Of a stretch of 64,000 nt of DNA, positions 37,856 to 42,821 are shown one piece after another. Origin of the DNA: Meiothermus ruber DSM 1279 (GTDB taxonomy: Bacteria > Deinococcota > Deinococci > Deinococcales > Thermaceae). The position numbers and the translations under genes are program-made. The notes under the pieces are model-generated. The model searched no databases. It had not been told where the DNA came from and worked only from the letters and a program-made list of their open reading frames with translations. The DNA is taken from NCBI RefSeq assembly GCF_000024425.1, contig NC_013946.1:124001-188000 (forward strand). Reading direction: 5' to 3'. Within the stretch, counting starts at the first letter, position 1; each line of letters opens with the position of its first letter.

Positions 37856-37899
37856 TATAATTATCTTTAGCGCGGGAGATATCCCGCCTATTTTATTTT
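37856..37899 (+). promoter_or_regulatory. Plus-strand TATAAT box followed at once by a terminator-like hairpin
   Basis: TATAAT at 37856-37861 (TTTTCA 16 bases upstream), then GCGGGA-GATA-TCCCGC (37872-37887) and CTATTTTATTTT. A transcript started here would end after about 35 bases, pointing into the 3' end of the pseudouridine synthase gene from the antisense side. The hairpin may also simply serve as that gene's end. Confidence 0.4.
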
Positions 37900-38627
37900 C
37901 AGCCGGGCAAGCCAACCACCTCGTAGAGGGCTTTGATCTCATCTGGGGTAAGTTGGCGGCTGGCCCCAGGGGGCAGGTTGGGCGGAAGTTGGAGAGGCCC
38001 AAAGGCCAGGCGTTTGAGGTAGGTTACCTGGTTGCCGCGAGCGGCGAACATTCGTTTGACCTGGTGAAACCGGCCCTCGCGGAGGACGAGCTCGACCTTA
38101 CGAGGGTCGGGGCCCAGGTACAGCTCTGCTGGCTGAAGTGGTTCGCCCTCGAGCTCGAGCGTACCCGCTGCAAAGACCGCGACATCCTCGGGGGTTGCGG
38201 GGCTGGCTAACTCCACGTAATAGCGCTTGGTTACCTTCCAGCGCGGATGGGTGAGCCGGTGCAATAGCTCACCGTCGGTGGTGAGCAGCAAAAGGCCCTC
38301 GGTATCTTTGTCCAGGCGACCCACGGGCATCCAGTCGTTGCGCCAGAATTCTTCGGGCAGGAGGGCCGTGATGGGGGTGCCGCTGGGGTCTTTGGTGGAG
38401 GTGATGTAGCCGGCGGGTTTGTTGAGCAGAAGGTAGAAGAATTTTTGATATACCAGCGGCTCCCCAGCCACCTCGATGTGGGCCTGGCTGGGGTCAAACT
38501 TAAAGCCTGCATCGGCGACGATCTTGCCGTTGATGGTAATCAGGCCTGCTCGAGCCAGCCGGTGTATCTCTTTGCGGCTGCCCACGCCCAGGTGCCCCAG
38601 CACTTTGTCTAAACGCTCGTAGGCCAT
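37899..38627 (-). CDS. rRNA pseudouridine synthase, RsuA/RluB family
   Basis: 242 residues from ATG 38627. An S4 RNA-binding domain is at residues 1-60 (ERLDKVLGHLGVGSRKEIHRLARAGLITINGK), followed by the catalytic domain: LLNKPAGYITSTKD, the catalytic Asp in PVGRLDKDTEGLLLLTTDG and the C-terminal EGRFHQVKRMFAARGN. The family modifies 16S U516 (RsuA) or 23S U2605 (RluB). RsuA seems slightly more likely from length (no long tail). Its 5' region has a promoter, palindrome and short hairpin right before the start codon. Confidence 0.87.
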   Translation of the reverse strand: MAYERLDKVLGHLGVGSRKEIHRLARAGLITINGKIVADAGFKFDPSQAHIEVAGEPLVYQKFFYLLLNKPAGYITSTKDPSGTPITALLPEEFWRNDWMPVGRLDKDTEGLLLLTTDGELLHRLTHPRWKVTKRYYVELASPATPEDVAVFAAGTLELEGEPLQPAELYLGPDPRKVELVLREGRFHQVKRMFAARGNQVTYLKRLAFGPLQLPPNLPPGASRQLTPDEIKALYEVVGLPG

Positions 38628-38715: not shown

Positions 38716-38742
38716 GGTAAGCTAACGCAAACCCCCGGACAG
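38716..38742 (+). repeat. Left direct repeat (attL-like) of the element
   Basis: 27 bases starting GGTAAGCTAACGC and ending CCCCCGGACAG. The left flank supplies GCAGGCCTGC (palindrome, 38703-38712) and GGG, giving a GGGGGT...ACCCCC stem. The right flank gives GGACAG...CTGTCC around the palindrome TTCCTAGGAA. Confidence 0.8.
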
Positions 38743-38765
38743 TTCCTAGGAAGGAAGCTGTCCAG

Positions 38766-39053
38766 ATGCCCAAAAATCGCCAAGACGATAATCTCACAAG
38801 CCCTGCAAGACCCCAACCTGTAGACCCCCCTACAACCAGGAACTATTTCGAGGCCCTTGCTCGCGCATCTGCGTGCAAGGCGGCTGTGGATGAGGCGCTG
38901 CTGACCAACGACATGGCAATGCTCGAGGCCCGCCTGGCTATGTTTGCCCAGGCCCGGCGTGAGCTGGTGGCGGCTCGGGCTGCATTGTTTACCGAAACAG
39001 CCCGTTGGGTGCGGGCCATGTTCCGCCCCTGGAAGGGAGTGCGGTATGGATAG
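38766..39053 (+). CDS. Hypothetical element protein, 95 aa
   Basis: Not recognised. First gene of the element, starting at ATG 38766 with AAGGAAGC upstream. The N-terminal third is Pro/Asn/Gln-rich and probably disordered. From residue 27 on it is a continuous charged helix (YFEALARASACKAAVDEAL, then MLEARLAMFAQARRELVAAR), predicted coiled coil. The stop overlaps the start of the next gene by eight bases, indicating a tightly packed operon. Confidence 0.65.
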   Translation: MPKNRQDDNLTSPARPQPVDPPTTRNYFEALARASACKAAVDEALLTNDMAMLEARLAMFAQARRELVAARAALFTETARWVRAMFRPWKGVRYG

Positions 39054-39189
39054 GGCCCAGCTCGCCTACCAAATCTGGCTGGCCCAGCTAGCCCTATACC
39101 GCTCTCGCTTGCAGGTGCACGAGCTGTTCTTTGTTACCGAGTACCTCGAGTTCACCCGAGAGAAAAGCCGGGAGGTGTACCGTGCCTAG
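39046..39189 (+). CDS. Hypothetical element protein, 47 aa
   Basis: Not recognised. ATG 39046 is preceded by GAAGGGAGTGC as ribosome binding site and overlaps the previous stop. The peptide (MDRAQLAYQIWLAQLALYRS...) is an amphipathic helix with a charged C-terminus. Its stop overlaps the GTG of the next gene by eight bases. Support comes from the overlapping packing and the ribosome binding site. Confidence 0.55.
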   Translation: MDRAQLAYQIWLAQLALYRSRLQVHELFFVTEYLEFTREKSREVYRA

Positions 39190-39577
39190 CCCCACCTCCC
39201 CTTACGCCCAACAAGATGAACAGTTCAGAAAGCTGCTTGAGCAGGTACATCACGCCACCCAGCAACCGGGTGTGAAATTCCTGGCGCTGATACGCAAGCG
39301 CTACCAGGGGGCCATCATCTGGGTCTGTGCCTCCACCTCCAAGGCCCCCCAGTACGCCGAAATCTGGGGCACTGGCGAGTCACCCCTCGAGGCCCTCCTC
39401 GACCTGGTCGAGCTGCTGGGTATGGTGCCGGCCTCTCCACCGGAACAAGGGGGCACACCCACTATACAAAATGAAGCTTGTCCCTCACGCAAAAATCGAG
39501 GCTCTGTAAGCCACGCTAAGGCCCCTCGCAGAGGTGGCCCAGGGTCTACCACCGGAGAAAGGGGTGATCGGGCATGA
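39182..39577 (+). CDS. Hypothetical element protein, 131 aa
   Basis: Not recognised. GTG 39182 is chosen over earlier in-frame codons because GGGAGGTG lies seven bases upstream. The N-terminal 90 residues look folded (QFRKLLEQVHHATQQPGVK, FLALIRKRYQGAIIWVCAS, then SPLEALLDLVELLGM), alternating helix and strand. The last 40 residues are basic and Gly/Pro-rich, likely disordered. It overlaps the next gene by the ATGA tetranucleotide. Confidence 0.6.
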   Translation: MPSPTSPYAQQDEQFRKLLEQVHHATQQPGVKFLALIRKRYQGAIIWVCASTSKAPQYAEIWGTGESPLEALLDLVELLGMVPASPPEQGGTPTIQNEACPSRKNRGSVSHAKAPRRGGPGSTTGERGDRA

Positions 39578-40668
39578 CCGCACCCCGCCCATCCATCGAA
39601 TCCCCAGCCTTCAGCAACCTCAAGGCCGACCTGGCCGCCAACCCGCCCAAGGTACGCAAGACCATAGACTACTACCGACAGCAAATCGCCCTTGAGGCCA
39701 GGGAACGCCACAAGCTCAACCAACAATCCTTTGAGCTATACAGCCACCTGCTAAACGCCGCCTTGCTGTGGCTGGGGCACAAGCGACTCTCTACCCTGCC
39801 AAAACAGGTTACTTTGCACGCCCCTCTCGAGCAGGTGGCCCTGGACTTCGGGGTGCACCGCCACACCATCAAGCACTGGCTACGGCCCCTGGTACAGGCT
39901 GGCCTGGTGGTCTACCGGCCTCAGAAGGTCACAGCCTGGGGCCGCACCTGCCATACCGGCACGGTCTGGTTCGTGAGCCTTGACCCCACCCGTAAAGCCC
40001 GCCTGATCTGGAGCGACATGAAAGAAACCTACCGCAACCTGGAGCAGGATAAAGCCAACGGAAAGCTGTCCTACACGGTGATTCGACATACAAAAGAAAG
40101 TGGACAGTTAGGATTGGATGCAGGTCTTCTTAACTGGGCGATCCCCTCCAGATCTATCCAACCCGAGAATAATCTGTATGTCGAAAACTCGTCCAGCACG
40201 GTAGAAGTGCTATTTGAAGTCGAGTTTGCCAGCCGAAAAGAGGTGGGCGAGGTGGTGGAGCGGGCGGCCAGGGCTATCCTGGCGGCTCTGGGCGACGACC
40301 CCAGGCGGTTTGGGGGGTGGTGCTGGTTGCTCTGGCAGGCCCGCCGGCTGGCCGATGTGGGGCAGAGCATTTTTACGCGTCTGTATGAGCAAATCCGACG
40401 AGGCATGGATGCCCGCGAGCGCGGCCGGCTCAACAACCCGGCAGCCTACACCCGCCACCTGCTGGACGAAACCGGGCTGCTGGACATGCTACGGAACGCT
40501 CCGGTGCGTCGGTGGCCTACCTGGGAGGGCGGTCATGAACATCTACCAGCAAAAAGCCGCCTGGCGGATGCTATCCGACATTCGTATCGGTCTGCGGCTG
40601 TACACCGGCCTCGAGCCCCACACCAGCACCCGCCACCGCATCCACAGCGGCTACCGACTGGCTCTTAA
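39574..40668 (+). CDS. Winged-helix protein, putative replication initiator of the element
   Basis: 364 residues, the largest protein of the element. A winged helix-turn-helix is seen at about residues 81-118 (LEQVALDFGVHRHTIKHWLR, then PLVQAGLVVYRP), followed by a strand-rich part (TCHTGTVWFVSLD). A second helical domain spans about 210-310 (EVVERAARAILAALGDDPRR, RRLADVGQSIFTRLYEQIRR). This size, domain order and position resemble plasmid/phage replication initiators, but I see no diagnostic Rep motif. The last ~45 residues overlap the next gene and look like translation of that gene's other frame. Confidence 0.6.
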   Translation: MTAPRPSIESPAFSNLKADLAANPPKVRKTIDYYRQQIALEARERHKLNQQSFELYSHLLNAALLWLGHKRLSTLPKQVTLHAPLEQVALDFGVHRHTIKHWLRPLVQAGLVVYRPQKVTAWGRTCHTGTVWFVSLDPTRKARLIWSDMKETYRNLEQDKANGKLSYTVIRHTKESGQLGLDAGLLNWAIPSRSIQPENNLYVENSSSTVEVLFEVEFASRKEVGEVVERAARAILAALGDDPRRFGGWCWLLWQARRLADVGQSIFTRLYEQIRRGMDARERGRLNNPAAYTRHLLDETGLLDMLRNAPVRRWPTWEGGHEHLPAKSRLADAIRHSYRSAAVHRPRAPHQHPPPHPQRLPTGS

Positions 40669-40744
40669 CAGGGCCCGGCAACTGGTGGCCCTGCTGGAAA
40701 GCCTGGAAAAGGAGCATGCATGGCAAAACCTGGCCGAAAACTAG
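40535..40744 (+). CDS. Hypothetical element protein, 69 aa, nested start
   Basis: Not recognised. ATG 40535 lies inside the 3' end of the putative initiator gene in another frame, with GGGAGGGCGG six bases upstream. The product (MNIYQQKAAWRMLSDIRIGL...) is helical and basic, ending LLESLEKEHAWQNLAEN. The 134-base overlap is long, so either the initiator really ends earlier or both frames are used. It overlaps the next gene by 25 bases. Confidence 0.5.
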   Translation: MNIYQQKAAWRMLSDIRIGLRLYTGLEPHTSTRHRIHSGYRLALNRARQLVALLESLEKEHAWQNLAEN

Positions 40745-40953
40745 GCTACCGCACCCCCAATAGCCTGCTGACCTACCCCATCCTGGAGAACCTGTATCTG
40801 ATGGGTTACAGCTCTGATAAAGCTGCACAGATCGTGCGAGAACTGGGCTACACCTGTAGCAACCATACCGCCTGGAGGCGCTGGAAGGAGTTTGAGCGTA
40901 AGCACCCCGAGGCCCTATTGCGGTACGGCCAACCCAAACGGGAGGTTGTGTGA
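40720..40953 (+). CDS. Small helix-turn-helix-like element protein, 77 aa
   Basis: ATG 40720 follows AAGGAGCATGC. The peptide has LENLYLMGYSSDKAAQIVRELGYTCSNHTAWRRWKEFER, which reads as a recognition-helix type HTH (S-x2-KAAQIVRELG, then a turn, then HTAWRRWKEFE). A small DNA-binding protein, possibly an excision or copy-control factor. Function is inferred only from the HTH-like segment. Confidence 0.55.
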   Translation: MAKPGRKLGYRTPNSLLTYPILENLYLMGYSSDKAAQIVRELGYTCSNHTAWRRWKEFERKHPEALLRYGQPKREVV

Positions 40954-41102
40954 TTGCTTTTGGTTTGCTTTTTGTCCTGGTCGTGGCAGTGGTTTGGCTG
41001 GGGCCGGAGAACACCTTTTGGCAGGCCGTGTTCCTGGCTGCACTGGCCGTTGCTATTGGATTGTGGATATCCACAGCGCTCAACACCCTCAGGAGGAAGT
41101 AA
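40950..41102 (+). CDS. Two-helix membrane microprotein, 50 aa
   Basis: GTG 40950 overlaps the previous stop (GTGTGA), with GGGAGGTTGT upstream. The product is almost entirely two membrane helices (IAFGLLFVLVVAVVWLG and FWQAVFLAALAVAIGLWIS) joined by PENT and closed by a basic tail (LNTLRRK). Such small proteins occur in phage and plasmid operons as holin-like or exclusion proteins; that is only a possibility. The following GTG at 41103 directly abuts its stop. Confidence 0.5.
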   Translation: MIAFGLLFVLVVAVVWLGPENTFWQAVFLAALAVAIGLWISTALNTLRRK

Positions 41103-41174
41103 GTGCGCCGGCACATTGAGCGCGTCTTGCAAGCCGGCCCAGCGACGCTCGAAGAGATCGCCAGTCGGTTGTAG
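41103..41174 (+). pseudogene. Winged-helix N-terminal piece cut off by an amber codon
   Basis: GTG 41103, right after the previous stop with AGGAGGAAGTAA overlapping. It encodes 23 residues (VRRHIERVLQAGPATLEEIA + SRL) that form the first two helices of a winged helix, ending at TAG 41172. The same frame continues after the TAG as VTPVEVLNQMERAGTVLEMG, the recognition helix and wing, and runs on into the BrnT-like toxin gene. Without the TAG the two would be one HTH-toxin fusion of 147 residues. Confidence 0.55.
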
Positions 41175-41201
41175 GTTACCCCTGTGGAGGTGCTAAATCA
41201 G

Positions 41202-41546
41202 ATGGAACGGGCCGGCACAGTTTTGGAGATGGGGGGCTACTGGTCTTTGCTGCCATCAGCAGATAAAAACTGGGAGCCCAATGTAATCATCACCGCCGAA
41301 ATAGAGGGCAAGATCAGGCGCAAGCACAACGTGAGGCCCCAGGAGGTGCACCAGGCTCTTGCCGATCCCAAGCGGCGCAGCAGGCCCGTAATGAGCGAGG
41401 GGGAAAACCCGGTGGCTCTTGTGGTGGGCAGCACCGACGCTGGGCGCAAGCTCACAATGATTGTGATTTTGCTGCCCGACAGCTTGTATCTGGTATCGGC
41501 TCGAACTGCTAGGGCCAGAGAAATCGCTGAGGTACACTATGAGTAG
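41202..41546 (+). CDS. BrnT-like toxin candidate
   Basis: 114 residues from ATG 41202, which has GGAGGTG nine bases upstream; the frame is open from 41175. After a remnant of a wing (GTVLEMGGYWSLLP) comes the BrnT pattern: ITAEIEGKIRRKHNVRPQEV (the K-x2-KH motif), HQALADP, VVGSTDAGRKLTMIVIL and YLVSARTARAREIAEVHYE. These match the R-KH-V, DP, GRS-GR-L and ISAR-A-x3-E-x3-Y landmarks of BrnT ribonuclease toxins. The overlap of its stop with the next small gene is the usual toxin-antitoxin arrangement, here toxin first. Confidence 0.6.
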   Translation: MERAGTVLEMGGYWSLLPSADKNWEPNVIITAEIEGKIRRKHNVRPQEVHQALADPKRRSRPVMSEGENPVALVVGSTDAGRKLTMIVILLPDSLYLVSARTARAREIAEVHYE

Positions 41547-41739
41547 AGCCATGGCTAGAACCACCTCCAAAACCCCCCGCAAAGTTAAGGTGCCCCGCCG
41601 TCTGACCCAAGGGCCCGAACAACTGGGCCCCCTTGCCGACTGGGTCGATCGGCACAGCACCCGGCTGGAGCTGGGCCCGATTGACCCGGAGCTTGACCGG
41701 CAGATCACCCACCGCCTAACCAAGCCGCGCTATGAATGA
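41539..41739 (+). CDS. Putative antitoxin partner, 66 aa
   Basis: ATG 41539 overlaps the toxin stop by eight bases. A very basic N-terminus (ARTTSKTPRKVKVPRRLTQ) precedes a short acidic/helical C-terminus (DWVDRHSTRLELGPIDPELD, RQITHRLTKP). It is the size of a BrnA-type antitoxin, which follows its toxin in the same overlapping order, but no clear ribbon-helix-helix motif can be read, so the assignment rests on position. It overlaps the next gene by eight bases. Confidence 0.45.
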   Translation: MSRAMARTTSKTPRKVKVPRRLTQGPEQLGPLADWVDRHSTRLELGPIDPELDRQITHRLTKPRYE

Positions 41740-42106
41740 TGCACCCCCTTTTACAACCCGTCGCAGGGCTACCTATGAACGCTCGCTAGCCTACCGTTTG
41801 GGCCTGCGGGCCTGTGCCAAGCGGAATAGCCTATCGCCTGCTGAGATCGAGCACCGCCACATCCTCGAGGTCATTACCGGCTCCGCCGAGGCTGCCGAGT
41901 ACCTGGCCCACGAGTTCCCCACCCTGTACGCCCTGGCCCAGTTTGGTAGCCGTTACGGGTTCAAGCGGCTGGAGTTCTGCCCAGGGATCAGTTACGCGGC
42001 CATTGGCAAGCTGGAGGTGTGGCTCGAGTCCCAGGGCCGCGTAGGGATGCAGCTCACGGTGGCGCATGGTTCGGATTGGCCAAAACGAAAACATCGGAGG
42101 GGGTGA
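41732..42106 (+). CDS. Hypothetical element protein, 124 aa
   Basis: Not recognised. Last gene of the element, ATG 41732, overlapping the previous stop. Compact and probably globular, with a basic start (TTRRRATYERSLAYRLGLRA), a helical middle (IEHRHILEVITGSAEAAEYL) and aromatic-rich strands (YGFKRLEFCPGISYAAIGKL). It ends 18 bases before the right direct repeat. No membrane segment or signal peptide. Confidence 0.6.
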   Translation: MNDAPPFTTRRRATYERSLAYRLGLRACAKRNSLSPAEIEHRHILEVITGSAEAAEYLAHEFPTLYALAQFGSRYGFKRLEFCPGISYAAIGKLEVWLESQGRVGMQLTVAHGSDWPKRKHRRG

Positions 42107-42124
42107 GCGGCTTTTCAAACTGAC

Positions 42125-42151
42125 GGTAAGCTAACGCAAACCCCCGGACAG
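42125..42151 (+). repeat. Right direct repeat (attR-like) of the element
   Basis: Identical over 27 bases to 38716-38742 and in the same orientation. Its right flank makes GGACAG-AC-CTGTCC (42146-42159), a 6-bp hairpin; the same two hexamers are 15 bases apart at the left copy. Confidence 0.8.
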
Positions 42152-42179: not shown

Positions 42180-42821
42180 TCAGGTCTCGAGGGTTGGTGC
42201 CAGACCCAGGTGCAGCACATATTTTTCCGAGCCGTTCCGGTGAGCATAACGCTCATATAGCTCCCAAAGTTCGCGTTGCAGGGCTTTGGCATCATCTCTG
42301 TCCAGCATCAGGCCTCCGTTCCAGAGGTTGAGGATGGCGGGGTGCTGGGGGTTTAGGTGTTCGGGTGGGTGGGCTTCCTCCTCGAGGTAGGAGCCCCAGA
42401 CCAGCAGCCCATCAGCGTTGCGGTAGACCACAATTTCCGATCCGGGGTGTTCTCGCAGGGCTTTTTGCAGGCTGCGCTCGAGGCGGGCCTTCCAGAAAGC
42501 ATGACCGGTTAAGTTCTCCAAGAGGCGCTGGGGTATCAGTTCCAGGGGAACGCGAAAAGAGGTAGAGATGGCCTGGTAGTGCTTGATGGGCCGCCCTTGT
42601 CTTTTGGAGACCGCTACCACCTTCAACAAGCCGGCCTTGTGCATCTGCTCGACCCGGTAGTGCAGGGTTTGGATGGGTAGACCGAACGCCTCGGCCGCGG
42701 CTTTGATGGTGGTGGGGCTGCGCATAAAGGGCTTGAGAAATACGGCGCTCTTGGGGTCGGCCAGAATGCGGGCGGCCAGCGCGTTATCGACCAGGTGTGC
42801 CCTGGGCATGCTCTGGGACAT
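42180..42821 (-). CDS. Winged-helix transcriptional regulator (ArsR-like)
   Basis: 213 residues. The DNA-binding domain is at about residues 15-75: LADPKSAVFLKPFMRSPTTI, KAAAEAFGLPIQTLHYRVEQ (recognition helix), MHKAGLLKVV and the wing RQGRPIKHYQA. The C-terminal ~130 residues are an unassigned effector or dimer domain. It is divergent from an MFS transporter gene with an inverted repeat between, so it probably controls that exporter and itself. Before insertion of the 3.4-kb element its 3' end would have faced the pseudouridine synthase promoter directly. Confidence 0.8.
   Translation of the reverse strand: MSQSMPRAHLVDNALAARILADPKSAVFLKPFMRSPTTIKAAAEAFGLPIQTLHYRVEQMHKAGLLKVVAVSKRQGRPIKHYQAISTSFRVPLELIPQRLLENLTGHAFWKARLERSLQKALREHPGSEIVVYRNADGLLVWGSYLEEEAHPPEHLNPQHPAILNLWNGGLMLDRDDAKALQRELWELYERYAHRNGSEKYVLHLGLAPTLET

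What the first reader, a model, noticed from the sequence alone, without database searches (positions are those of the whole stretch)
38716..42151. A 3.4-kb integrated element with perfect 27-bp direct repeats and no recombinase
Perfect direct repeats at 38716-38742 and 42125-42151 enclose about ten overlapping plus-strand genes between minus-strand host genes. Cargo seen: coiled-coil protein, putative winged-helix replication initiator, small HTH, two-helix membrane microprotein, toxin/antitoxin candidate. No integrase, relaxase or transposase is readable. Joining the outer flanks through one repeat copy gives a compact predicted empty site with two hairpins (GGGGGT...ACCCCC and GGACAG-AC-CTGTCC), and the host genes 42180-42821 and 37899-38627 become direct neighbours. 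This would be a new kind of very small satellite or plasmid-like element that uses a recombinase in trans.
Basis: partly seen in the sequence, partly recalled or inferred. Interest (0 to 1): 0.85.

Follow-up and report, generated by a model that had tools for sequence, protein, structure and literature searches.

The report
Deleted provirus of a membrane phage
The 3.4-kb insert is not a new miniature satellite but the left-over early end of an internal-membrane bacterial virus related to Thermus phages P23-77 and IN93; intact relatives of this virus in neighbouring species carry a transposase next to their ends and sit in chromosomes like giant transposons, which is not described for this virus group in the papers I could search.

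Summary
Observation confirmed. The 27-bp direct repeats at 38716-38742 and 42125-42151 are exact, are the only repeated 27-mer in the window and occur nowhere else in the genome. The predicted empty site, one 27-mer between the two host genes, exists in two related species. The satellite reading is not supported. A Meiothermus MAG (KatS3mg071) holds the same DNA, 98% identical, in a closed 17,732-bp circle with the capsid proteins, packaging ATPase and gene order of the P23-77/IN93 phages (Matshushitaviridae). The window keeps about a fifth of it, with a frameshift, an in-frame stop, a 1.3-kb internal deletion and no capsid genes: a provirus remnant. The "missing recombinase" was deleted with the rest: intact relatives carry an IS481-like DDE transposase (usually with a small serine recombinase) beside the virus ends and no tyrosine integrase. 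Three such proviruses have TG...CA inverted ends and 14-15-bp target duplications; one has an empty site in a relative. The 27-mer looks like this virus's left inverted end (shuffle p about 1e-4). Virus circle and chromosome of the same MAG each carry one copy, so crossing-over at the 27-mer explains the insertion. The enzyme is inferred; the origin of the chromosomal copy is unexplained.

The parts
38716..38742 (+). left copy of the 27-bp repeat; corresponds to the left inverted end of the virus circle in KatS3mg071
38743..38765 (+). leader with palindrome around TTCCTAGGAA before the first gene; G015 has TTTCTAGAAA at the same place
   Evidence: sequence
38766..39053 (+). early virus gene 1 (95 aa), no family
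39046..39189 (+). early virus gene 2 (47 aa), no family
39182..39577 (+). early virus gene 3 (131 aa), no family
39574..40668 (+). Rep-like replication initiator, homologous to P23-77 ORF1 and Thermus/Deinococcus plasmid proteins; 1-base deletion near 40511 changes the C-terminus relative to the KatS3mg071 copy (321 aa there, 364 here)
40535..40744 (+). small virus gene (69 aa)
40720..40953 (+). small virus gene (77 aa), possible helix-turn-helix, no significant family match
40950..41102 (+). two-helix membrane microprotein (50 aa)
41103..41546 (+). winged-helix plus BrnT-like gene, broken by TAG at 41172-41174; uninterrupted homologue in G015
41539..41739 (+). small virus gene (66 aa)
41732..42106 (+). 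truncated fusion of a 147-aa virus gene with a downstream virus gene; a 1,338-bp virus stretch is missing at about 42062
42063..42124 (+). 62 bp of a further virus gene; its end CTGAC abuts the right 27-mer directly; about 13 kb of virus (capsid, ATPase, lysis and recombination genes) is missing here
42125..42151 (+). right copy of the 27-bp repeat

Best explanation
The insert is a decayed remnant of a provirus of a P23-77/IN93-like tailless internal-membrane phage. SHOWN: a closed 17,732-bp circle of this virus exists in MAG KatS3mg071 with one 27-mer; the same MAG's chromosome has an empty site with one 27-mer; in the window the virus DNA lies between two 27-mers at that site. So the virus most simply entered by a crossing-over at the shared 27-mer. 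SHOWN: close relatives lack a tyrosine integrase and carry an IS481-like DDE transposase, mostly with a small serine recombinase, at the virus end; three of their proviruses have TG...CA inverted ends and 14-15-bp target duplications. INFERRED: the 27-mer is the left inverted end recognised by this transposase; the chromosomal copy is either a solitary left end from an earlier insertion or an end-like target; insertion used this pair by homologous recombination or by the transposase. INFERRED: the remnant arose by a transposase-type adjacent deletion, in which the tip of the right-hand 27-mer was joined to an internal virus site (CTGAC|GGTAAG), plus an ordinary 1.3-kb deletion and point mutations. 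It is probably inert now.
For: Window 38716-41080 and 41235-42062 are 97.6% and 98.6% identical to the circle. The circle's ends join without a gap inside a stretch that is continuous in G012. Virus identity: VP17 against PDB 3zmn E=1.6e-12 and P23-77 VP17 E=9e-17; VP16 E=3e-5; ATPase against IN93/P23-77; Rep against P23-77 ORF1 E=6e-8. Empty site in G016 and G017. DDE: IS481 model E=1e-40, 1e-38 and 5e-57 in three viruses, D-D-E residues conserved in four. No tyrosine recombinase inside these proviruses; serine recombinase in three of four. Ends and duplications: G003 GGACTGCGATTTCAC, G015 GCTAATAGATGCAT, G012 AAAAAAGCCGGGGTG with a single copy of the homologous target in G020. 27-mer end against the opposite virus end: 17 of 24 in register, shuffle p about 1e-4. 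Three different sequences abut the 5' edge of the 27-mer at the same base.
Against: The 27-mer starts with GG, not the TG seen at the other virus ends. It is present in two relatives' chromosomes without any virus next to it, so a solitary-end origin needs an unseen older event. No provirus of exactly this lineage with both intact ends was found, so its target duplication could not be read. The circle comes from a MAG, so the virus may belong to another cell of the sample. The serine recombinase could be the real integrase in this lineage.
Confidence: 0.8

Rival explanations
1. Conservative site-specific integration: the 27-mer is an attP/attB core recombined by the virus's small serine recombinase, by host XerCD, or by another tyrosine recombinase in trans, as in IN93-type prophages; the transposase is only a passenger.
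For: 27 bp are identical between virus circle and empty chromosomal site, typical of an att core; IN93 itself carries a tyrosine integrase; a serine recombinase is present in the circle.
Against: No tyrosine integrase in the circle. Related proviruses with the same kind of transposase insert at unrelated sequences with 14-15-bp duplications. G015's provirus has no serine recombinase. The window's right arm is not the attP left arm and starts exactly at the core edge, an unexplained coincidence under this model.
Confidence: 0.2
2. The 27-bp repeat is simply a long target-site duplication made by the transposase; the single copy in relatives is the untouched target and the copy in the circle came from recombination between the two duplicates.
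For: IS1202-group members of the IS481 family have duplications of 24-29 bp (PMC10045372); relatives hold a single copy.
Against: Under this model the virus ends would be TTCCTAGG... and ...TTTTTCAAT, which are not TG...CA and show little mutual similarity (score 19, p 0.036, against score 28, p 1e-4 with the 27-mer included). Relatives have 14-15 bp.
Confidence: 0.12
3. A true small satellite or plasmid-like element that excises as a 3.4-kb circle through the 27-mers, replicates with its own Rep and uses a helper virus for mobilisation and packaging.
For: Two intact 27-mers and a nearly complete Rep gene remain; a related virus exists to act as helper.
Against: No second, independent occurrence of the 3.4-kb form: the other loci with a Rep at 80% identity or more are full viruses. 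Frameshift, stop and a deletion-made fusion gene point to decay.
Confidence: 0.08

Closest known systems
Matshushitaviridae (Hukuchivirus): Thermus phages P23-77 and IN93
   Same: VP16/VP17 capsid pair, packaging ATPase, M23-type endolysin, transglycosylase, Rep, gene order, circular genome of 17-20 kb
   Different: In the KatS3mg071 circle the capsid and ATPase proteins are only 22-29% identical; in place of IN93's tyrosine integrase after the transglycosylase gene there is an IS481-like transposase, usually with a serine recombinase; the window copy has lost all virion genes
IS481 family insertion sequences, including the IS1202 group
   Same: DDE transposase of IS481 type, TG...CA inverted ends, duplications of about 15 bp as reported for some members (PMC10045372)
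   Different: The unit moved is an 18-kb virus genome, not a short insertion sequence; transposase scores lie below the NCBIfam equivalog cut-off
IN93-type proviruses in the same genome and genus (G000 at 1,443-1,455 kb, G018, G021)
   Same: Same virus group, integrated
   Different: Use a tyrosine integrase about 57-60% identical to that of IN93
Transposable phages of the Mu type (from memory)
   Same: A virus that inserts with a DDE transposase
   Different: Mu is a tailed phage with MuA/MuB and 5-bp duplications; no relation of virion genes

Membership tests
Matshushitaviridae-like virus | two major capsid proteins VP16 and VP17 | tested here: met
   intact relative L029: VP17 to PDB 3zmn E=1.6e-12, VP16 E=3e-5; absent from the window itself, which is a remnant
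Matshushitaviridae-like virus | packaging ATPase of the group and gene order | tested here: met
   (L029, G015, G012, G003)
Matshushitaviridae-like virus | circular genome of about 17-20 kb | tested here: met
   17,732-bp contig whose ends join without a gap in a stretch continuous in G012
Matshushitaviridae-like virus | icosahedral virion with internal membrane | not testable with these tools
   inferred from capsid proteins
IS481-type transposition | IS481 DDE transposase | tested here: met
   NF033577 is the best model in three viruses, though below its equivalog cut-off; D-D-E conserved
IS481-type transposition | TG...CA terminal inverted repeats and target duplication | tested here: met
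   G003, G015, G012
IS481-type transposition | same features at the window's own ends | tested here: inconclusive
   the 27-mer matches the opposite virus end in register, but the tip is GG and the right end is deleted
tyrosine-integrase prophage (IN93 kind) | tyrosine integrase in the element | tested here: not met
   none in the circle or in the G003, G012 and G015 proviruses
phage satellite / minimal mobile element | recurrent compact unit found apart from the full virus | tested here: not met
   only the full virus or solitary 27-mers were found

The most novel reading that the evidence does not exclude
This virus lineage has turned transposase-driven insertion into site-specific insertion: the DDE transposase joins the virus circle to a host copy of its own left end (end-targeted insertion), and the 3.4-kb product can still circularise through the two end copies and be moved and packaged by an intact relative.
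Probability: 0.12. Interest if true: 0.75.

Novelty: new variant of a known kind. Interest (0 to 1): 0.5.

Why it matters
Internal-membrane phages of the P23-77 group were known to me, and in the searchable literature, as lytic (P23-77) or temperate (IN93, whose record carries a tyrosine-type integrase). Here relatives in two capsid clades carry an IS481-like transposase at the matching genome position and sit in chromosomes with inverted ends and 14-15-bp duplications: an exchange of integration modules between integrase and transposase. It gives a natural system, with circle, empty site, remnant and full provirus in sister species, to test how a single-ORF transposase inserts an 18-kb virus. 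The window itself is a remnant and of modest interest alone.

Tried and rejected
Rep in IMG/VR and in the phage collection: no hits. 27-mer in IMG/VR: none. Transposase and ATPase in IMG/VR: none confirmed. Pfam and PHROGs name almost none of the small genes. I first took the transposase beside the circle's 27-mer for a random IS insertion; rejected because it sits at the same place in four viruses. I considered a dif/Xer site from the look of the repeat; no dedicated test was made. I considered the 27-mer as a dispersed repeat; rejected. I could not decide whether the chromosomal 27-mer is itself an insertion: the intergenic region in G021 and G005 lacks it but does not align well enough.

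Full report
The window is G000:C1:124001-188000 of a complete 3,097,457-bp genome; the size equals that of Meiothermus ruber DSM 1279 from memory. The 27-bp direct repeats are exact, the only duplicated 27-mer of the window and unique to this site in the genome.

Searching the family gave two further single copies at the same intergenic place: G016 and G017:C1. G017 is MAG KatS3mg071, and its 17,732-bp contig C26 carries a third kind of copy: the 27-mer followed by the same early genes as the window. Window 38716-41080 and 41235-42062 match it at 97.6% and 98.6%.

C26 is a virus. The large capsid protein finds P23-77 VP17 in the PDB (3zmn, E=1.6e-12) and by BLASTP (9e-17); the small one finds VP16 (3e-5); the packaging ATPase finds IN93, P23-77 and Tsatsa; Rep finds P23-77 ORF1 (6e-8) and Thermus and Deinococcus plasmid proteins. 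Its ends join without a gap in a stretch that is continuous in the G012 relative, so it is a complete circle. The window lacks 1,338 bp inside and all of the virus beyond 42124 (about 13 kb). The Rep reading frame is shifted near its end, the winged-helix/BrnT-like gene has a TAG at 41172, and the last gene is a fusion. This is a remnant.

Full proviruses of the same clade lie in G015 and G012, and one with a more P23-77-like capsid in G003. None of these contains a tyrosine recombinase. All of them, and C26, have an IS481-like DDE transposase gene at the same end of the genome; C26, G012 and G003 also have a small serine recombinase beside it. IN93 has its tyrosine integrase at the matching place, after the transglycosylase gene, and the IN93-type proviruses of G018, G021 and M. 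ruber itself carry a homologue of that integrase.

The provirus ends support transposition. G003: ends TGAATTGTTCGAATAGTTCGCCGACAG / TGAAACGTTCGGATAGATCGCCGACAG and duplication GGACTGCGATTTCAC. G015: ends TGTAGATTCCAAGCAAACCCAGGA / TGTTAATTCCAACAAAGTCCAGGA and duplication GCTAATAGATGCAT; a related genome, G009, has the two flanks next to each other. G012: same left end, right end on contig C46, duplication AAAAAAGCCGGGGTG, with one copy of the homologous target in the empty site of G020. IS481-family elements with TGT...ACA ends and about 15-bp duplications, and IS1202-group members with 24-29 bp, are described (PMC10045372).

In C26 the two virus ends abut...CAGGTAACTGTAATCCGGAAGTTGGCGTTATTTTTCA AT GGTAAGCTAACGCAAACCCCCGGACAGTTCC.... 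The 27-mer and what follows match the reverse complement of the opposite end (TAACGCxAACxxCCGG...ACAGTTxCCT; 2 of 20,000 shuffles score as high), and the TG of the right end predicts the 5' edge of the 27-mer to the base. Three different sequences abut that edge: chromosome (GGG|), right virus end (CAAT|) and an internal virus site (CTGAC|, window 42124). I read the 27-mer as the left virus end, and the window's right junction as an adjacent deletion made from that end. The solitary chromosomal copies in G016 and G017 are then either old left ends or end-like targets; this point is open.

Mechanism, with steps marked. Shown: circle with one 27-mer, chromosome with one 27-mer, integrated remnant with two. 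Inferred: crossing-over at the 27-mer by homologous recombination or transposase; later adjacent deletion, an ordinary deletion and point decay. Not shown: any enzymatic activity.

Novelty: the window is an ordinary remnant. The transposase-carrying Meiothermus branch of the P23-77/IN93 group seems undescribed in the searchable papers, but subscription papers were not searched, so this is a limited statement.

Noticed in passing
G000:C1:1443530-1454900 (L042), outside the window: The same chromosome carries a separate, far more complete IN93/P23-77-like provirus with an IN93-type tyrosine integrase (60%), Rep (57%) and VP16 (69% to P23-77).
   Followed up: partly
G000:C1:71112-71732, outside the window: A further packaging-ATPase homologue of this virus group, suggesting another provirus or remnant in the same genome.
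   Followed up: no
L099:2160 to L100:2942 (G003): Provirus with a P23-77-like capsid but the transposase/serine-recombinase module, inserted just upstream of rpsL; suggests that integration modules are exchanged between capsid clades.
   Followed up: partly
L029:12299-12733 and window 41184-41546: BrnT-like ribonuclease domain (below the Pfam cut-off) in the virus early region; in KatS3mg071 a 154-bp deletion fuses it to the two-helix membrane protein.
   Followed up: no
L033, L034, L035 (Thermus contigs of 18-20 kb): Small contigs, probably plasmids, carry distant relatives of the same Rep and, in L033, an IN93-like integrase.
   Followed up: no
G009 and G001 genomes: Dozens of IS481-family transposase copies or fragments (39 and 40 hits listed).
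   Followed up: no
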